From Candidatus Thioglobus sp. NP1 (GTDB lineage: Bacteria; Pseudomonadota; Gammaproteobacteria; PS1; Pseudothioglobaceae), in contig NZ_CP023860.1 of the NCBI RefSeq assembly GCF_003326015.1, positions 1,178,001 to 1,242,000 of the forward strand: a DNA stretch of 64,000 nucleotides, given 5' to 3'. A model generated the notes under the pieces. That model had not been told where the DNA came from, ran no database searches, and saw nothing but the letters and a program-made list of their open reading frames with translations. The position numbers and the translations under genes were made by a program. Shown piece by piece: positions 30,431-36,538 of this stretch. How positions within the stretch are numbered: the first letter of the stretch is position 1; each line of letters opens with the position of its first letter.

Positions 30431-31906
30431 ATGAACGAAATGTGGAATCAATTTTTTTCCCTAAGGCATGATAAGCCTCGTACGCTTCAGTTGCAAATCC
30501 GTCAACAATTAATTGATGCAATAACAAATGGTTTGATTGGACCAAATGAACCATTACCATCATCAAGGAATCTTGCTAAAGCCCTTAATGTAGCAAGAAA
30601 TACTGTATTAGCGGCCTATAAAGAGCTTGAATTTGATGGTTATATTACTCCTCAAGAAAGAAGAGGTTACTTCGTAAATGAGCAATTCTATGAAAATTTT
30701 ACAGATAGCAGCGAGGATCAACTTAAAAACATTACTACACCAGTGTGGCTTGATAGCTTAATTACAAAAAAACCATCTATTAAAACTAATATTCGTAATC
30801 CTGAGAATTGGCAAAGTCTTCCATATTCTTTTACAATTGGGCAGTTAGATAAAAGCCTTATTCCTTATTATGAGTGGCGGGAAGTGGTTAGACACTCTTC
30901 AACTCTTCCTGAAATACAAAAATGGAATATTGATCATGTTGATAAAGATGATCCCTCATTAATAAAGCAAATTCAATCTAAAGTTCTTCCTAAAAGAGGT
31001 ATTTGGGCTAATAAAGATCAAATTTTGATTACCTCAGGTAGTCAGAATGCAATCTATATTATTGCCAGTCTTTTGGCAAAACAAGGGACAGTTATTGGTA
31101 TGGAAAACCCTGGATATCCTGATGTAAGAAATATTTTTAGTTTTCGAACTGACAATATTGTTCCCATTGGAATAGATCAAGATGGGATTATTGTTGATGA
31201 AATTAAACCTGAAATTGATATTATTTTTACGACTCCAAGTCATCAATATCCAACAGGAGTAACTATGAGTATGGATAGAAGAAATAAACTTCTAGCTATT
31301 GCTAAAGAAAATCAAATGGTAATTATTGAAGATGACTATGAAGCAGAGGTCAATTTTTTAAGAAAACCCAACCCATCTTTGAAAAGTCTTGATAAAGATA
31401 ACAATGTTATCTATGTTGGAAGCTTTTCAAAAGCATTTGCACCAGGCCTTAGGTTAGGATATATGGTTGCACCAGAAAGTTTTGTTAAAGAAGCAAGAGC
31501 TCTAAGGCGGTTAATGATAAGACATATACCAGCAAATAATCAACGCTCAGTTGCTTTATTTATTGGACTAGGTCATTATCATAATATGTTTACAAAAATC
31601 CAAAAAACTAACAAAGAAAGGTGGGGGTTAATTAATGAAAAAATTAATCAGGAACCCCTTCTATCTGCCACTCCCACCCTTGGTGGCTCAACTTTTTGGG
31701 TCAAGATTCCAGAATCAATTGATACTGAAAAACTTTGTCAAAAACTTCTAGAAAAAGGGGTTGCTGTCAGACCTGGTAATGCATCTTTTGCAGAGAAAAA
31801 GTCACCAGCAAATTATTTACACCTTGGATATTCTGCTATTGATACTAATAAGATAAATAAAGGTATAGATATTATCGTAAAAGAAATTAAAGCGATGATG
31901 CATTAA
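30431..31906 (+). CDS. tauR: TauR-type MocR/GabR-family transcriptional regulator
   Basis: A 491-residue fusion regulator: an N-terminal GntR-type winged helix-turn-helix (about 15-80, RQQLIDAITNGLIGPNEPLPSSRNLA then VARNTVLAAYKEL) and a class I aminotransferase-like domain (about 115-485) with the PLP Lys in YVGSFSKAFAPGLRLGY. This domain senses a PLP-amino compound in GabR, PdxR and TauR. It is divergent from tpa-ald-xsc and separated by 141 bases that hold repeated CCAGCAA sites, so it most likely activates taurine genes. A second in-frame ATG four codons in is possible. The secreted-protein gene follows after 19 bases. Confidence 0.88.
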   Translation: MNEMWNQFFSLRHDKPRTLQLQIRQQLIDAITNGLIGPNEPLPSSRNLAKALNVARNTVLAAYKELEFDGYITPQERRGYFVNEQFYENFTDSSEDQLKNITTPVWLDSLITKKPSIKTNIRNPENWQSLPYSFTIGQLDKSLIPYYEWREVVRHSSTLPEIQKWNIDHVDKDDPSLIKQIQSKVLPKRGIWANKDQILITSGSQNAIYIIASLLAKQGTVIGMENPGYPDVRNIFSFRTDNIVPIGIDQDGIIVDEIKPEIDIIFTTPSHQYPTGVTMSMDRRNKLLAIAKENQMVIIEDDYEAEVNFLRKPNPSLKSLDKDNNVIYVGSFSKAFAPGLRLGYMVAPESFVKEARALRRLMIRHIPANNQRSVALFIGLGHYHNMFTKIQKTNKERWGLINEKINQEPLLSATPTLGGSTFWVKIPESIDTEKLCQKLLEKGVAVRPGNASFAEKKSPANYLHLGYSAIDTNKINKGIDIIVKEIKAMMH

Positions 31907-31925
31907 AGTATCTTTAAAAATTTAT

Positions 31926-34007
31926 ATGAAAAAATTACTCTTAAAATTTTTATTAGTTTCTAGCCTCATGGGTATATCTTTTATAGGAGCTGATGAATCA
32001 AATCTAAATATTTATGAAGATCAGCAGTCTGATCCTTTTGTAAGATACATTGATGTTCAGAATTTAAGACTATATTCATTAGATGAAGTTTCTAATAAGT
32101 TTCTAAAAAATGTAGCAAAAACGTATCTACTAATGTTAAAAACTAATAGTCAAATAGATCCAGAAATGAGGGGTGAATATTTAAAAATTACTAAAAATAA
32201 CTATGTTTATCAAAGAATTGGCCTAGAAGGAACAGATTATTATGAAAAAAAATTTAATACTAGTTTTAACAACTTACCTCAATCAAGGATAGTTGAGAAT
32301 GGTCCTTTCAGAGAGAATATTACTGACTATATTTGGGAATACAGGCGAGAAAATATAAAATCAGAGCAAATAACTGAAGTTATTGAACACTTACTCCATA
32401 CTATAACTAATGTAGCTTTTTCAATTCAATACTCAGATTGGGATTGGAGAAACCCCTCTTCCATGATTAACCTCGCTACACAAGAAGCAATTGATAAAGG
32501 AATTTTTAATATTTCAGGCTATAAAGAGATTCTTGATAGAGGCGATGAGGATGGTTTTAATAAGGCTATTACAACAGAGTTTGCATATTGGTTAATTGCT
32601 GTTGAGTGGGGCCTAGGAGATTTCATAGGAATCCCAAATGATGAGTTTAGAATTGGTAATCGTAAAGAAATTTCTGAAAAGCTTCCACTTGGACATAGAA
32701 TGTATAAATGCTATGTTGAAAAAATCTTAAGCCCACCTGATTTAAAAAGTCTTCTATCAATTTTTCCAACAAATGGAAAGACTAATAATCAAGATTTGAC
32801 TAATAAAATTGAAGATTATAACTGTGACCAAAATATAAACCTCAATCAAGAAATAAACTTAAATATTAATGAAAATATAAGCCTCAATCAAGAAATCAAC
32901 TTAAATATTGAAGAAACATGTAATCGCCAAATCAAAGGGTTTTGGAAAGATTATTTAGAGCTAAATAAAAGTGAGTTTAATTCTAGAGGGTATTTATTTA
33001 TAGTAGAAGGTGAGGATGGCAGATGCGAATATGGAGTAGGTATTAATAAAAATGATGCCTTTATAGATTGTACAAAATGGAAAGAAGAAAATAATATAAT
33101 CGGAAAATGTATGCCATATGCGAAAGATGGTAAAGTTCTATTGGATAAGCACTCAAATAATGATGAGGCTAAACAGACAAATAATGGTGAGGCTAAACTA
33201 ACTAGTAATATACTTAAGGGTAAAGAATCAAAAAACTTAAGTAGCTGGGAATGTATGAGAGGAAGCTTTGATAAATTTGTCGAAGTATATGGGGTTTATG
33301 TTGTGGGCTCACCTGGAGCACCTATGTACAAAGTTATGCATACTGCTGGAGTATTAGCACAATATTTAGATAATGATGAGAACGGTCTGCCAGATGATCC
33401 TAGAGTTGTATCTTATCTTTCAAATAATAACTATATTGTGCCAGTTTGGAGTGTTAGTGATAGAGAAAATTTTTGGGAAAATGCAAGAGGTAGCTATTGT
33501 GAAGATAATATTGGTATGGCTGCAAGTATGTATTATGATGAAGACCAGTGGGCCATAGGTGGTATTCAAAAAACTGGTCAATGGGATACAAATCTAGAAG
33601 AGGTATGGCACGTTGTTTCTGCAGGATGGTATGAAGTTTATCCAAAATATTTTGGCAATAAGGAATCTATGCTTCATAAAGCAATGGATAAAGCTCGGGG
33701 TGGTAAGTTTGAAGAGGTTCCGTCAAAATACCCAAAAAGTGCCTGGTACACCTATAATGACAAGGGTTGCAGTTATGAATGTCAAGCGCATGAATATTTT
33801 TACTGGATTTTGATGGCTAATATTAATGCTCTTAATTTATCCTACACTGACAAATGTTCGCCAAATGATGAATGGAATATCTGCAATAGATTTGATCTTA
33901 AGAAAAAGGATATCTTAGCATATGAATTATTGAATAATTATGATTTTATATTTCCTACCAAAATACCAAATGGTGAATACAAGCCTAATATAATTAATGT
34001 TTACTGA
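31926..34007 (+). CDS. secreted cysteine-rich protein with two diverged copies of an E-x3-H ... E domain, function unknown
   Basis: I do not recognise this 693-residue protein. Residues 1-22 are a signal peptide with a likely cut after IGA. Two halves look like ancient copies of one domain. The N-half (about 37-280) has E151-x3-H155 and E218 in TEFAYWLI; the C-half (about 448-685) has E558-x3-H562 and E623 in HEYFYWIL. The H-to-E distances are 63 and 61, suggesting metal-binding sites. Between them lie a linker of two 14-residue repeats (about 302-329) and a small Cys-containing domain (about 350-405). D482-x-D484-x-N486-G resembles a calcium loop. Many cysteines imply disulfides outside the cytoplasm. 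It is 19 bases after tauR, probably on the same transcript. Confidence 0.8.
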   Translation: MKKLLLKFLLVSSLMGISFIGADESNLNIYEDQQSDPFVRYIDVQNLRLYSLDEVSNKFLKNVAKTYLLMLKTNSQIDPEMRGEYLKITKNNYVYQRIGLEGTDYYEKKFNTSFNNLPQSRIVENGPFRENITDYIWEYRRENIKSEQITEVIEHLLHTITNVAFSIQYSDWDWRNPSSMINLATQEAIDKGIFNISGYKEILDRGDEDGFNKAITTEFAYWLIAVEWGLGDFIGIPNDEFRIGNRKEISEKLPLGHRMYKCYVEKILSPPDLKSLLSIFPTNGKTNNQDLTNKIEDYNCDQNINLNQEINLNINENISLNQEINLNIEETCNRQIKGFWKDYLELNKSEFNSRGYLFIVEGEDGRCEYGVGINKNDAFIDCTKWKEENNIIGKCMPYAKDGKVLLDKHSNNDEAKQTNNGEAKLTSNILKGKESKNLSSWECMRGSFDKFVEVYGVYVVGSPGAPMYKVMHTAGVLAQYLDNDENGLPDDPRVVSYLSNNNYIVPVWSVSDRENFWENARGSYCEDNIGMAASMYYDEDQWAIGGIQKTGQWDTNLEEVWHVVSAGWYEVYPKYFGNKESMLHKAMDKARGGKFEEVPSKYPKSAWYTYNDKGCSYECQAHEYFYWILMANINALNLSYTDKCSPNDEWNICNRFDLKKKDILAYELLNNYDFIFPTKIPNGEYKPNIINVY
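32830..32913 (+). repeat. 42-base tandem duplication in the secreted-protein gene
   Basis: Two adjacent 42-base units (32830-32871 and 32872-32913) differ at only a few bases and encode NINLNQEINLNINE and NISLNQEINLNIEE, a polar Asn/Leu/Ile-alternating linker. The near identity suggests a recent in-frame duplication. Confidence 0.85.
33155..33202 (+). repeat. 24-base tandem duplication in the secreted-protein gene
   Basis: Two 24-base units (33155-33178 and 33179-33202) encode the related octets around NNDEAKQT and NNGEAKLT in the second linker, before the C-terminal domain. Another in-frame linker duplication. Confidence 0.75.
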
Positions 34008-34069
34008 TTAAGAAAATCTTTTTGATATATGTGAAACAAATACTTATTTTTATAATACTATTATTAAGC

Positions 34070-36538
34070 CTAATTTCTAATTTTGCTATTTAAAGGGTCA
34101 TACATTGGTTTTAAAGATGCATTAGCTTTTTCAATCACACCCTCAACCTCAATGGTATATTCAGCATTTAAAATATCCTCATGACTCTCATTAGGCAGAC
34201 ATGTAACATAACCAAGACCAACTGCACCTCCTAACGTATGGCTATAGGTGCCACTTGTTAAATGACCTACAATCTCACCATTTTTTAAGATAGGCTCATT
34301 ATGGTAGAGCATAGACCCAGGATTACTAAGTAGAAATTGCATTACCCGCATTTCATAGCCAGAAGCCTTTTTTTTAATAACAGACTCATATCCTATGAAA
34401 TTACCAAATTTTGAAGGATTCTTATCGACTTTAACTGCGAACCCAAGTCCTGCATCAATGACGTGATCTTCATCAGTAATGTCATGTCCAAAGTGTCTAT
34501 ATGCTTTTTCAATTCGACAACTATCAACAGTATGCATCCCAATCTGTCTTAAAGAAAACTCCTCACCTTTTGAATCAATTAGCTCAGCTACATAACTTGA
34601 AAACTCAATTGGAAAGTATAACTCCCAGCCTAATTCACCAACATATGTTATTCGGTGTGCACGTACATTTGCCATACCAACCTCAATATTGCGAACATTT
34701 GCAAAAGGGAAGCTTTCGTTACTCATATCAGTATCTGTAAGAGATTGTAGTAAATCTCTCGAATTTGGCCCCATAATGGCGATACAGCCCTCAGCACTAG
34801 TTGCATCAAATAGTGAACAATTGGCCCCTTCAGGCAAATTCTTTTTAAGCCAATGCATATCTCGATTCAAACACATTGTGCCACTGACTATTAAATAATC
34901 ATCAACTTCAAGACGAGTAACTGTTACGTCAGCTTCAATACCGCCTTTCCGATTAAGCCACTGCGTATAAACCATTTTACCGACATCAACATCAACATCA
35001 TTTGCACAGATCATCTGCATAAAGTCCATAGCATCAGAACCTTTGACTCGAATTTTTGCATATGACGACATTTCATACATACCAACAGTCTCTCTGATTG
35101 CTTGCTGCTCTAATCTATGAAAATCAAACCAATTTTGCCTTCCCCAGGAATATTCATACTTAGCCTCAACCTTTCCAATCAAATCCTTTGGAACAAACCA
35201 ATTAGGCCTCTCCCAGCCAGCAACCTCACCAAAACAAGCACCACGCTCTTTGAAAAACTCATACAAAGGAGTTTTTCTTAATCCTCGTGCTGTTTCGTAT
35301 TGATGGTATGGAAAATGATTTTCATAAAGATAGCCTAAAGTTTCAGTAACTCTATTTGCTAAGTAAATTTTATTATTTTGAAATGGCTCATTTCTTCGTA
35401 TATCTACATCCCATAAATCACAGGGAGGTTCTTTTCCTTCAATCCATTCAGCTAAATACTTACCAGCTCCACCTGCAGCCTGAATTCCAATGGAATTAAA
35501 TCCAGCCGCTACAAAGAAATTACCTAATTCAGGCGACTCTCCTATTTGAAAATTATCGTCTGGAGTAAAACTTTCAGGTCCATTAAATAGAGTCTCAATT
35601 CCTAAACTCTCCATAACTGGCACACGGTTCATTGCAAGCTCTAGATAAGGCATACAGTGATCTAAATCATCTTGTATTTGGTCAAAACAAAAATCTTCTG
35701 GTATTCCATTTTGCGCCCATGGTTTTGCGTTTGGCTCAAATAGCCCAACAAGTATTTTTCCAGCATCCTCTTTATAATATGCCGACTCATCTGGAACTCT
35801 TACTACGGGCATATCTCCCATATTTGGAACGGCTGAAGTTAGGAAGTAAAAGTGCTCACAAGCATGAAGAGGGACTGAAACACCAGCCATTTTGCCAACC
35901 TCTCTTGCCCACATTCCACCGCAGTTTACTACAGCATCAGATTGTATGTCACCATACTCAGTTTGAACTCCTACAGCTTTTCCATCTTTTTTAAGTATTC
36001 CAGTAACCTTAACGTCTTCAAAAATCTTAGCACCATTATTTTTAGCTCCTTTAGCAAGAGCCATGGCTACGTTTGCTGGATCAGCCTTGCCATCCTTAGG
36101 AATCCACGCCCCACCAACAACATCATCAAGCTTAAAAAGATCAATCTTATCCCTTAACTCATCAGTAGTTAATATCTGGACATCAACTCCATGAACTTTA
36201 GCAAGTGATGCGTTGCGCTTGTATTCAGTTAACCTTTCTTGGTTAGTTGCAAGGCTTATAGAGCCAGTTCGGCGATAACCAGTAGCCATTCCTGTTTCAG
36301 CTTCTAATGTTTCGTAAAGGTTTCCAGAGTATTTAACCATTTGAGTAAGATTAAGCGAGGAGCGCATCTGCCCTACAAGTCCTGCTGCATGCCATGTGGT
36401 TCCAGATGTTAGCTTTTTACGCTCCAGAAGAACTACATCTGTGTAACCAAGTTTTGCGAGATGATAAGCAACTGAGCAACCTACTACTCCTCCACCAATA
36501 ATTACAGCTTGAGCATTTTTAGGTAATATTACTGACAT
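34070..36538 (-). CDS. FAD-dependent demethylating dehydrogenase with C-terminal GcvT domain (dimethylglycine/sarcosine dehydrogenase-like)
   Basis: An 822-residue two-domain enzyme. Residues about 10-400 form a D-amino-acid-oxidase-type FAD domain: GGGVVG at 15-20, and TWHAAGL whose His50 is the covalent flavin site in the dimethylglycine/sarcosine dehydrogenase family. Residues about 430-820 are a GcvT-like folate domain (GPNSRDLLQ, YVGELGWELYFP, GYVT). Known relatives remove an N-methyl group and pass it to tetrahydrofolate. It is last in the tauA-tauB-tauC operon, 42 bases after tauC, so its substrate may be whatever that transporter brings in. Dimethylglycine, sarcosine or N-methyltaurine are all possible. 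Confidence 0.82.
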   Translation of the reverse strand: MSVILPKNAQAVIIGGGVVGCSVAYHLAKLGYTDVVLLERKKLTSGTTWHAAGLVGQMRSSLNLTQMVKYSGNLYETLEAETGMATGYRRTGSISLATNQERLTEYKRNASLAKVHGVDVQILTTDELRDKIDLFKLDDVVGGAWIPKDGKADPANVAMALAKGAKNNGAKIFEDVKVTGILKKDGKAVGVQTEYGDIQSDAVVNCGGMWAREVGKMAGVSVPLHACEHFYFLTSAVPNMGDMPVVRVPDESAYYKEDAGKILVGLFEPNAKPWAQNGIPEDFCFDQIQDDLDHCMPYLELAMNRVPVMESLGIETLFNGPESFTPDDNFQIGESPELGNFFVAAGFNSIGIQAAGGAGKYLAEWIEGKEPPCDLWDVDIRRNEPFQNNKIYLANRVTETLGYLYENHFPYHQYETARGLRKTPLYEFFKERGACFGEVAGWERPNWFVPKDLIGKVEAKYEYSWGRQNWFDFHRLEQQAIRETVGMYEMSSYAKIRVKGSDAMDFMQMICANDVDVDVGKMVYTQWLNRKGGIEADVTVTRLEVDDYLIVSGTMCLNRDMHWLKKNLPEGANCSLFDATSAEGCIAIMGPNSRDLLQSLTDTDMSNESFPFANVRNIEVGMANVRAHRITYVGELGWELYFPIEFSSYVAELIDSKGEEFSLRQIGMHTVDSCRIEKAYRHFGHDITDEDHVIDAGLGFAVKVDKNPSKFGNFIGYESVIKKKASGYEMRVMQFLLSNPGSMLYHNEPILKNGEIVGHLTSGTYSHTLGGAVGLGYVTCLPNESHEDILNAEYTIEVEGVIEKANASLKPMYDPLNSKIRN

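What the first reader, a model, noticed from the sequence alone, without database searches (positions are those of the whole stretch)
31926..34007. Secreted protein with an internally duplicated E-x3-H ... E domain, tied to the taurine regulator
Seen in sequence: the N- and C-terminal halves share an order of landmarks. These are a YIDV/VYGV start, a helix ending in a D-rich loop, E151-x3-H155 versus E558-x3-H562, and E218-F-x-YW versus E623-Y-F-YW at nearly equal distances (63 and 61 residues). Two similar metal-like constellations in one exported, cysteine-rich polypeptide, joined by repeated linkers, fit no family I can name. The gene is only 19 bases after tauR, so it is probably co-expressed. 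It may be a metalloenzyme or binding protein for an organic sulfur or nitrogen compound, or merely a passenger gene.
Basis: partly seen in the sequence, partly recalled or inferred. Interest (0 to 1): 0.75.

Follow-up and report, generated by a model that had tools for sequence, protein, structure and literature searches.

The report
Secreted two-domain metallopeptidase-like protein
A marine sulfur bacterium exports a protein built of two distantly related domains that resemble metal-dependent peptidases but carry an altered active-site motif; one copy looks intact and the other disabled, and its position next to a taurine regulator is probably incidental.

Summary
The ORF at 31926-34007 (693 aa) is real, and its halves are homologous: profile score 27.0 against at most 13.6 in 200 shuffles. 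It is not a plain tandem duplication: residues ~1-405 stand alone (397-399 aa) in sister species, and ~436-693 stand alone in archaea (61% identical) and in another genome of the genus. The gene looks like a fusion of diverged paralogues. No Pfam or NCBIfam cut-off is reached. The C-domain model is confident (pLDDT 90.9), and all 50 listed structural neighbours are metalloproteases of the gluzincin type, at modest Z (7.1 or less). The family carries EExxH, not HExxH: 18 of 18 complete C domains and 22 of 22 wider relatives. Best reading: secreted, peptidase-like, with a probably active C domain and a conserved, probably inactive N domain. The tauR link is weak: 2 of 20 tauR-bearing genomes of the genus show it in that slot, though another homologue follows a TauE-family gene.

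The parts
30431..31906 (+).
   Evidence: Pfam PF00392 and PF00155; NCBIfam best match PdxR; the name tauR is from context
31926..34007 (+). gene X: two-domain exported metallopeptidase-like protein, 693 aa
31926..31991 (+). probable signal peptide (residues 1-22)
   Evidence: read from sequence, similar start in sister proteins; no predictor run
31995..32798 (+). N domain (residues 24-291), degenerate copy; in this survey found only in the genus
   Evidence: A4, hhalign to C domain; distribution; NG86 dN/dS about 0.04-0.21
32385..32399 (+). E154-H155-L-L-H158, counterpart of EExxH; the presumed catalytic-Glu position is His
   Evidence: invariant in the 4 N-half sequences
32577..32591 (+). E218-F-A-Y-W222, counterpart of E623-Y-F-Y-W627
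32826..32915 (+). Asn-rich repeated linker (residues 301-330)
   Evidence: read; different in L002/L008
32919..33140 (+). Cys-containing tail domain (residues 332-405); ends about where the stand-alone sister proteins end
   Evidence: a similar tail follows an HExxH protein in G004 in another frame
33141..33230 (+). fusion linker (residues 406-435), low complexity
   Evidence: shorter in L001
33231..34004 (+). C domain (residues 436-693), probably the active copy
   Evidence: A3, AF2 pLDDT 90.9 / pTM 0.90, structural neighbours
33339..33341 (+). invariant H472 (19 of 19 in this family; Arg in the wider family by my reading)
33369..33386 (+). 482-DNDENG-487, Ca-loop-like (by resemblance), C domain only
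33585..33611 (+). D554-x3-E558-E559-x2-H562, altered zincin-type motif
   Evidence: 18 of 18 complete family members; D-A-x-x-E-E-x-x-H also 22 of 22 in the wider family
33768..33806 (+). C615-x-Y617-x-C619-x3-E623-Y-F-Y-W627, presumed third-ligand helix
   Evidence: 18 of 18 for C615, Y617, C619, E623, Y624, Y626, W627
34070..36538 (-). DAO/GCV_T dehydrogenase-like gene, converging neighbour that bounds the variable slot
   Evidence: Pfam PF01266, PF01571

Best explanation
Gene X encodes an exported protein with two diverged copies of a gluzincin-like domain. In the C domain E558, H562 and E623 would hold a divalent metal (E558 in the place of the first His of HExxH) and E559 would be the general base that activates water, so that the domain cleaves a peptide or similar bond outside the cytoplasm. 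The N domain keeps the three presumed ligands (E154, H158, E218) but has His155 where the base should be and lacks the Cys pair and the D-rich loop; it is under purifying selection and most likely serves as a non-catalytic partner (substrate binding, folding or regulation). The gene arose when a genus-specific N-domain gene in the variable slot after tauR was joined to a C domain of the archaeal type. Shown: homology of the halves, motif register, conservation, stand-alone forms, variable slot, tree position. Inferred: export, zincin-like active site, metal binding, catalysis, role of the N domain, order of the fusion events.
For: Halves homologous. All 50 listed VIA-align neighbours of the C-domain model are metalloproteases that I recall as gluzincin-type: PPEP/Zmp1 Z up to 7.1, lethal factor 6.9, collagenases 5.7, a putative zinc peptidase (4l7a) 5.2, M1/LTA4H 5.0 and below, lugdulysin 4.8. 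EE/H/E invariant in 18 of 18 complete members, and EExxH plus distal E in 22 of 22 of a wider family linked by hhalign E 1.3e-16. A homologue is fused to a TAP-like alpha/beta hydrolase (L027, Pfam 3.2e-17); two wider-family proteins carry an end shared with protease SapA (NCBIfam 4e-8 and 5e-8, far below the family's whole-protein cut-off). Replacement of the first His by Glu is reported as a recurrent variation of HExxH, often in peptidase family M2 (PMC3650047, passages). N domain dN/dS about 0.04 to 0.21. Stand-alone N and C forms. Tree: the window C domain groups with three archaeal sequences, 100/99.
Against: No structural match is strong: Foldseek has none at E of 0.001 or below, VIA Z stays under 8, and the tool warns that a best Z of 7-8 is common for models without a clear match. 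HExxH is absent in every member seen, and no HExxH intermediate was found. No coordinates were available, so the superposition of EExxH on HExxH and the clustering of E558/H562/E623 are not measured. hhalign found no link to an HExxH protein of the same genus. The N half does not match the wider family (score 5.4, 50 shuffles up to 9.5), and its fold prediction failed, with no peptidase among the 4 neighbours listed.
Confidence: 0.5

Rival explanations
1. Both domains are non-catalytic: a peptidase-like fold reused as an exported metal- or ligand-binding protein, with the altered motif fixed after loss of activity.
For: The first His is replaced in all members seen; the N domain has also lost the base position; a further degenerate copy, with ELMYL near the motif position, follows the C-type domain in L026 and L028 (score 22.1, 100 shuffles up to 11.5).
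Against: Invariance of the whole D-x3-EE-x2-H ... E set, including the presumed base E559, across bacteria and archaea (18 of 18 and 22 of 22) is more than a binding role needs; fusion to a hydrolase.
Confidence: 0.3
2. A metalloenzyme of another chemistry (for example an oxidase or a hydrolase of small molecules) whose ExxH/E set binds iron, manganese or calcium.
For: E559-x2-H562 reads as ExxH, the only one in the protein; Glu in place of His in the EEXXH of ZIP8/ZIP14 is thought to broaden metal choice (PMC5661630, passage).
Against: The predicted fold mixes strands and helices and is not a four-helix bundle; one ExxH in all; the 50 listed structural neighbours are peptidases.
Confidence: 0.12
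3. A taurine or organosulfur enzyme or binding protein co-expressed with and controlled by the tauR-like regulator.
For: 19-base gap to the regulator; the stand-alone N form also follows that regulator in G014; in G020 the single-domain homologue starts 9 bases after a TauE/SafE-family gene, and TauE is also an occupant of the slot; no excess of promoter-like sites in the region (20 found, 21.2 expected).
Against: Only 2 of 20 tauR genomes of the genus show X or its N half in the slot; no gene I would call a taurine gene in three other contexts read by eye; PF01925 is a broad permease family (recalled).
Confidence: 0.08

Closest known systems
PRO-PRO endopeptidases / Zmp1 and the lethal-factor catalytic fold (PDB 6fpc, 9g0j, 5a0s, 5d1s)
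   Same: Best structural neighbours of the C-domain model (Z 7.1 to 5.7, 154-180 residues aligned); helix with the H motif, later helix with a Glu. As recalled, lethal factor also pairs an inactive N-terminal copy with an active C-terminal one; two rows align with its N-terminal part.
   Different: EExxH for HExxH, 61 residues from H562 to the distal Glu, no Pfam match, 9-14% identity.
Bacterial collagenases (M9) and M1/LTA4H aminopeptidases
   Same: Next structural neighbours (Z 5.7 to 4.5).
   Different: HExxH enzymes (recalled); 6-13% identity; Foldseek E not significant.
Families with substituted HExxH sites (survey PMC3650047; passages read)
   Same: First His to Glu is named there as recurrent, often in M2.
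   Different: There it is a variation within HExxH families; here every member found has Glu.
Unnamed gammaproteobacterial DAxxEExxH exported proteins (from L062-L086)
   Same: Same superfamily, hhalign E 1.3e-16 to the C-domain family; EExxH and distal E in 22 of 22.
   Different: No conserved Cys pair, H472 replaced (my reading), some with an RTX/SapA-like end.

Membership tests
Gluzincin (zincin) metallopeptidases | Zincin catalytic fold | tested here: inconclusive
   C domain pLDDT 90.9; 50 of 50 listed VIA neighbours are of this kind, but Z is at most 7.1 and Foldseek has none at E of 0.001 or below
Gluzincin (zincin) metallopeptidases | HExxH motif | tested here: not met
   no HExxH in the protein; EExxH in 18 of 18 complete C domains; EHLLH in the N half
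Gluzincin (zincin) metallopeptidases | Downstream Glu as third ligand on another helix | tested here: inconclusive
   E623 invariant in 18 of 18 and on model helix 182-197; distance to H562 in space not measured
Gluzincin (zincin) metallopeptidases | Bound zinc and peptidase activity | not testable with these tools
   needs protein
Any Pfam or NCBIfam family | Match above the curated cut-off | tested here: not met
   no match to P0001 reached its cut-off; the 19 members of A3 gave four single-member weak Pfam matches, best E 0.027
Carboxylate-bridged diiron proteins | Four-helix bundle with two ExxH pairs (recalled) | tested here: not met
   one ExxH in the protein; strands in the C-domain model
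TauR-linked taurine genes | Conserved neighbourhood with tauR | tested here: not met
   2 of 20 tauR genomes of the genus show X or its N half in the slot; one homologue beside a TauE-family gene instead

The most novel reading that the evidence does not exclude
The DAxxEExxH...E proteins are a new clan-level branch of exported metallopeptidases in which Glu has permanently replaced the first His ligand, shared by marine archaea and bacteria, perhaps tuned to a metal other than zinc; gene X is a fusion of a bacterial regulatory pseudo-copy with an archaeal-type catalytic copy.
Probability: 0.3. Interest if true: 0.7.

Novelty: new variant of a known kind. Interest (0 to 1): 0.5.

Why it matters
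If right, it adds an unannotated, exported peptidase-like superfamily to ocean microbes (SUP05-type bacteria and Poseidoniales-type archaea) in which the textbook HExxH motif is fixed as EExxH. That makes a direct test possible: can two carboxylates and one histidine support zincin-type catalysis, and with which metal? The recurrence of degenerate copies joined to intact ones offers a small system for studying what pseudo-peptidase domains are for. The apparent transfer between archaea and bacteria and the variable slot beside tauR are of local evolutionary interest. As a taurine gene it is not of special interest on present evidence.

Tried and rejected
E151-x3-H155 as the N-half motif: rejected by the profile alignment. 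Simple tandem duplication: disfavoured because the C half is far closer to archaeal proteins (61-62%) than to the N half (19% over the aligned columns). Virus, phage or plasmid carriage: no match in viral contigs (query A1), phages (query the L010 protein) or plasmids (query P0001). Sequence link to an HExxH protein of the same genus (G004, with a similar tail domain downstream in another frame): none (two-sequence profile). A first run had wrongly included two unrelated ORFs of L098 and is not used. N-half structure: model too poor; its neighbour search gave four rows at Z of 2.9 or less. Profile search of solved sequences with A3: none. The trypsin-motif gene of L001 has no Pfam match at E 0.1 (0 families also); its label rests on my reading of motifs. 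The ClpP-like label in L074 and others is also my reading.

Print: 'EEXXH' occurs in 4 papers of the library. I read one passage of one, on ZIP transporters; of the other three I saw titles and abstract starts: two concern ZIP8/SLC39A8 and one protein design. Searches gave capped listings (1 of 1, 13 of 14, 10 of 20, 5 of 5, 12 of 354 and 8 of 32,121 papers), and nothing in those listings named this family. I make no wider claim that it is not in print.

Rows dropped: L004 (contains N) left out of A3; repeats of the same proteins (L006, L007, L012, L016, L017, L019-L022) left out; L005 is a fragment, in A3 but not in the tree, and is the one gap in the '18 of 18' counts. Sampling counts include the genome that was the centre.

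Full report
What is there. The ORF at 31926-34007 encodes 693 residues with an export-like start and lies 19 bases after a MocR-like regulator (GntR plus aminotransferase domains). The genome is 1.69 Mb in one contig. The nearest named relative is a SUP05-cluster MAG whose protein is 96% identical (L001), so I take the window to be SUP05-type; the window's own record is not named. No match to the protein reaches a Pfam or NCBIfam cut-off, no PHROGs family matches at E 1, and no solved sequence matches at E 10.

Are the halves related? Yes. hhalign of the N-half alignment (4 sequences) against the C-domain alignment (19 sequences) scores 27.0; 200 column shuffles give mean 3.4, sd 2.4, maximum 13.6, and the reversed profile 2.7. 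The same alignment pairs residues 154-558, 155-559, 158-562, 218-623 and 222-627. Secondary structure of the two models agrees at 64.6% of 226 positions, against a maximum of 54.4% for rotations; this is weak support, because the N-half model has pLDDT 39.8 and its neighbour search gave nothing useful.

How it was put together. In G014 a 399-residue protein equal to the N half plus tail follows its own tauR, and a 397-residue form occurs in G007 and L002, which look like the same contig. The C domain occurs alone or in other fusions: as a 264-residue protein in G020 of the same genus, as 323-354-residue proteins in archaea (L003, L004, L029, L030), and in longer proteins elsewhere. The window C domain is 61-62% identical to the L003 and L004 proteins but 36% to the G020 protein. 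In the tree (18 rows, midpoint root) the window and L001 group with three archaeal sequences with support 100/99, while G020 groups with the other proteobacterial rows at 98/93. The nesting inside the archaeal group is only 80/74, so the direction of transfer is open; treekit also warns that the G020, G881 and G442 rows have long branches whose place is unsure. I read gene X as a fusion of two diverged paralogues rather than a tandem duplication. MAG misbinning is a caution for single archaeal records, but homologues were found in 9 of 194 sampled genomes of that class (two of them the seeds). The class name Poseidoniia is recalled; the records are titled Poseidoniales and Euryarchaeota.

Distribution. 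C domain: 2 of 274 genomes of the class, 3 of 398 of the phylum, 6 of 247 of the order of G174, 1 of 48 of the order of G442, 9 of 194 of the archaeal class (centres included). N-half alignment: 5 of 29 genomes of the genus, one of them (G004) the tail only, and in the phylum sample 1 of 398, the window itself. The spread is patchy.

Conservation. In A3, H472, D482, N483 and G487 are present in 19 of 19 rows, and D554, E558, E559, H562, C615, Y617, C619, E623 and W627 in 18 of 18 complete rows. A second family of exported gammaproteobacterial proteins (18 of 197 genomes) is related to the C-domain family (hhalign E 1.3e-16, score 90, 50 shuffles up to 14) and keeps R-D-A-x-x-E-E-x-x-H and the distal E-Y in 22 of 22. 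The N half does not match that second family (score 5.4, 50 shuffles up to 9.5). The N half keeps E154, H158 and E218 but has His155 at the base position. dN/dS (NG86) between N domains is 0.04 (window and L001), about 0.10 (L002 and L008) and 0.16-0.21 (window or L001 against L008 or L002); synonymous distances in the distant pairs are 1.2-1.3, so those ratios are rough. The N domain appears to be kept by selection.

Structure. The C domain is predicted with pLDDT 90.9 and pTM 0.90. Foldseek finds no PDB match at E of 0.001 or below; collagenase T heads its list, followed by a mix of peptidases and unrelated proteins. VIA-align of 913 chains puts only metalloproteases that I recall as gluzincin-type in the 50 listed rows: PPEP/Zmp1, lethal factor, collagenases, a putative zinc peptidase, M1/LTA4H enzymes and lugdulysin, with Z from 7.1 down to 4.5. 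The tool warns that such Z values can be chance for a single row; the uniformity of the list is the stronger argument. I had no coordinates, so the meeting of EExxH with HExxH in space is inferred from order and helix positions.

How it most likely works. The sequence order matches a gluzincin with the first His changed: E558 for His, E559 as the base, H562 and E623 as ligands. That substitution is reported as recurrent in HExxH families, notably M2 (PMC3650047, passages read). In ZIP8/ZIP14 transporters, EEXXH for HEXXH is thought to broaden metal choice (PMC5661630, passage read). Context agrees with exported hydrolase work: fusion to a TAP-like alpha/beta hydrolase in L027, an end shared with protease SapA in two proteins of the second family, and a trypsin-motif gene in the same slot (my motif reading). 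L026 and L028 carry another degenerate copy after their C-type domain (score 22.1, 100 shuffles up to 11.5), so pairing an intact with a broken copy occurs more than once. Since HExxH is tested and not met, I do not file it as a zincin member; I say that it probably works like one.

The tauR neighbourhood. Of 20 tauR-bearing genomes in the genus (of 29 searched), the space between tauR and the dehydrogenase-like gene holds X or its N half in 2 (G000, G014), a trypsin-motif gene in 2 (G016, G004), a remnant of it plus TauE in 1 (G021), TauE alone in 4 (G006, G026, G013, G010), a small kinase on the other strand in 1 (G018), no ORF of 60 aa or more in 8 (G002, G007, G011, G022, G017, G001, G020, G027), and a contig end in 2 (G009, G012) (TauE and kinase named by Pfam on one example each). 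In G009 (L001) X sits at a contig end with the trypsin-motif gene behind it, so tauR adjacency there is possible but unseen. Against my passenger reading: in G020 the single-domain homologue, far from tauR, starts 9 bases after a TauE/SafE-family gene (Pfam 2e-50). Whether that is a functional link or chance I cannot tell; I raised the taurine rival from 0.06 to 0.08 for it.

Verdict. The finding is an unannotated EExxH peptidase-like family with a fused degenerate copy: interesting, not proven as an enzyme, and probably not a taurine gene on present evidence.

Noticed in passing
window 31906-34070 and loci L036-L056: The space between tauR and the DAO/GCV_T gene is a variable cargo slot across the genus (TauE/SafE, trypsin-motif gene, kinase, gene X forms, or nothing).
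   Followed up: yes
L059:6035-7621 (G020): Single-domain homologue 9 bases after a TauE/SafE-family gene (PF01925, 2e-50), far from that genome's tauR.
   Followed up: partly
L001:2119-3129, also L038, L042, remnant in L055: Exported protein with trypsin-like motifs (SSAH, DTSGSPV; my reading) but no Pfam or NCBIfam match; in L001 it directly follows gene X.
   Followed up: partly
L060:5343-6362 (G004) and downstream: Exported HExxH protein followed, in another reading frame, by a tail domain like residues 301-411 of gene X.
   Followed up: partly
G000:C1:342565, 897675, 1394584 and other genus genomes: A ~50-residue N-terminal module shared by large exported-looking proteins of the genus.
   Followed up: no
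L026 and L028, second domain: Further degenerate copy of the domain, ELMYL near the motif position, after an intact EExxH copy.
   Followed up: partly
L062-L086: Unnamed family of exported gammaproteobacterial DAxxEExxH proteins, some with a ClpP-like N-terminal part (my reading, e.g. L074) and an RTX/SapA-like end.
   Followed up: partly
L002 and L009 against L044 (G007): G007 seems to hold two versions of the slot on different contigs, and L002 is titled PS1 clade yet carries the same SUP05-type genes; strain mixture or misbinning.
   Followed up: no
window 30431-31906: The regulator called tauR scores above NCBIfam's cut-off for PdxR, so its name needs checking.
   Followed up: no
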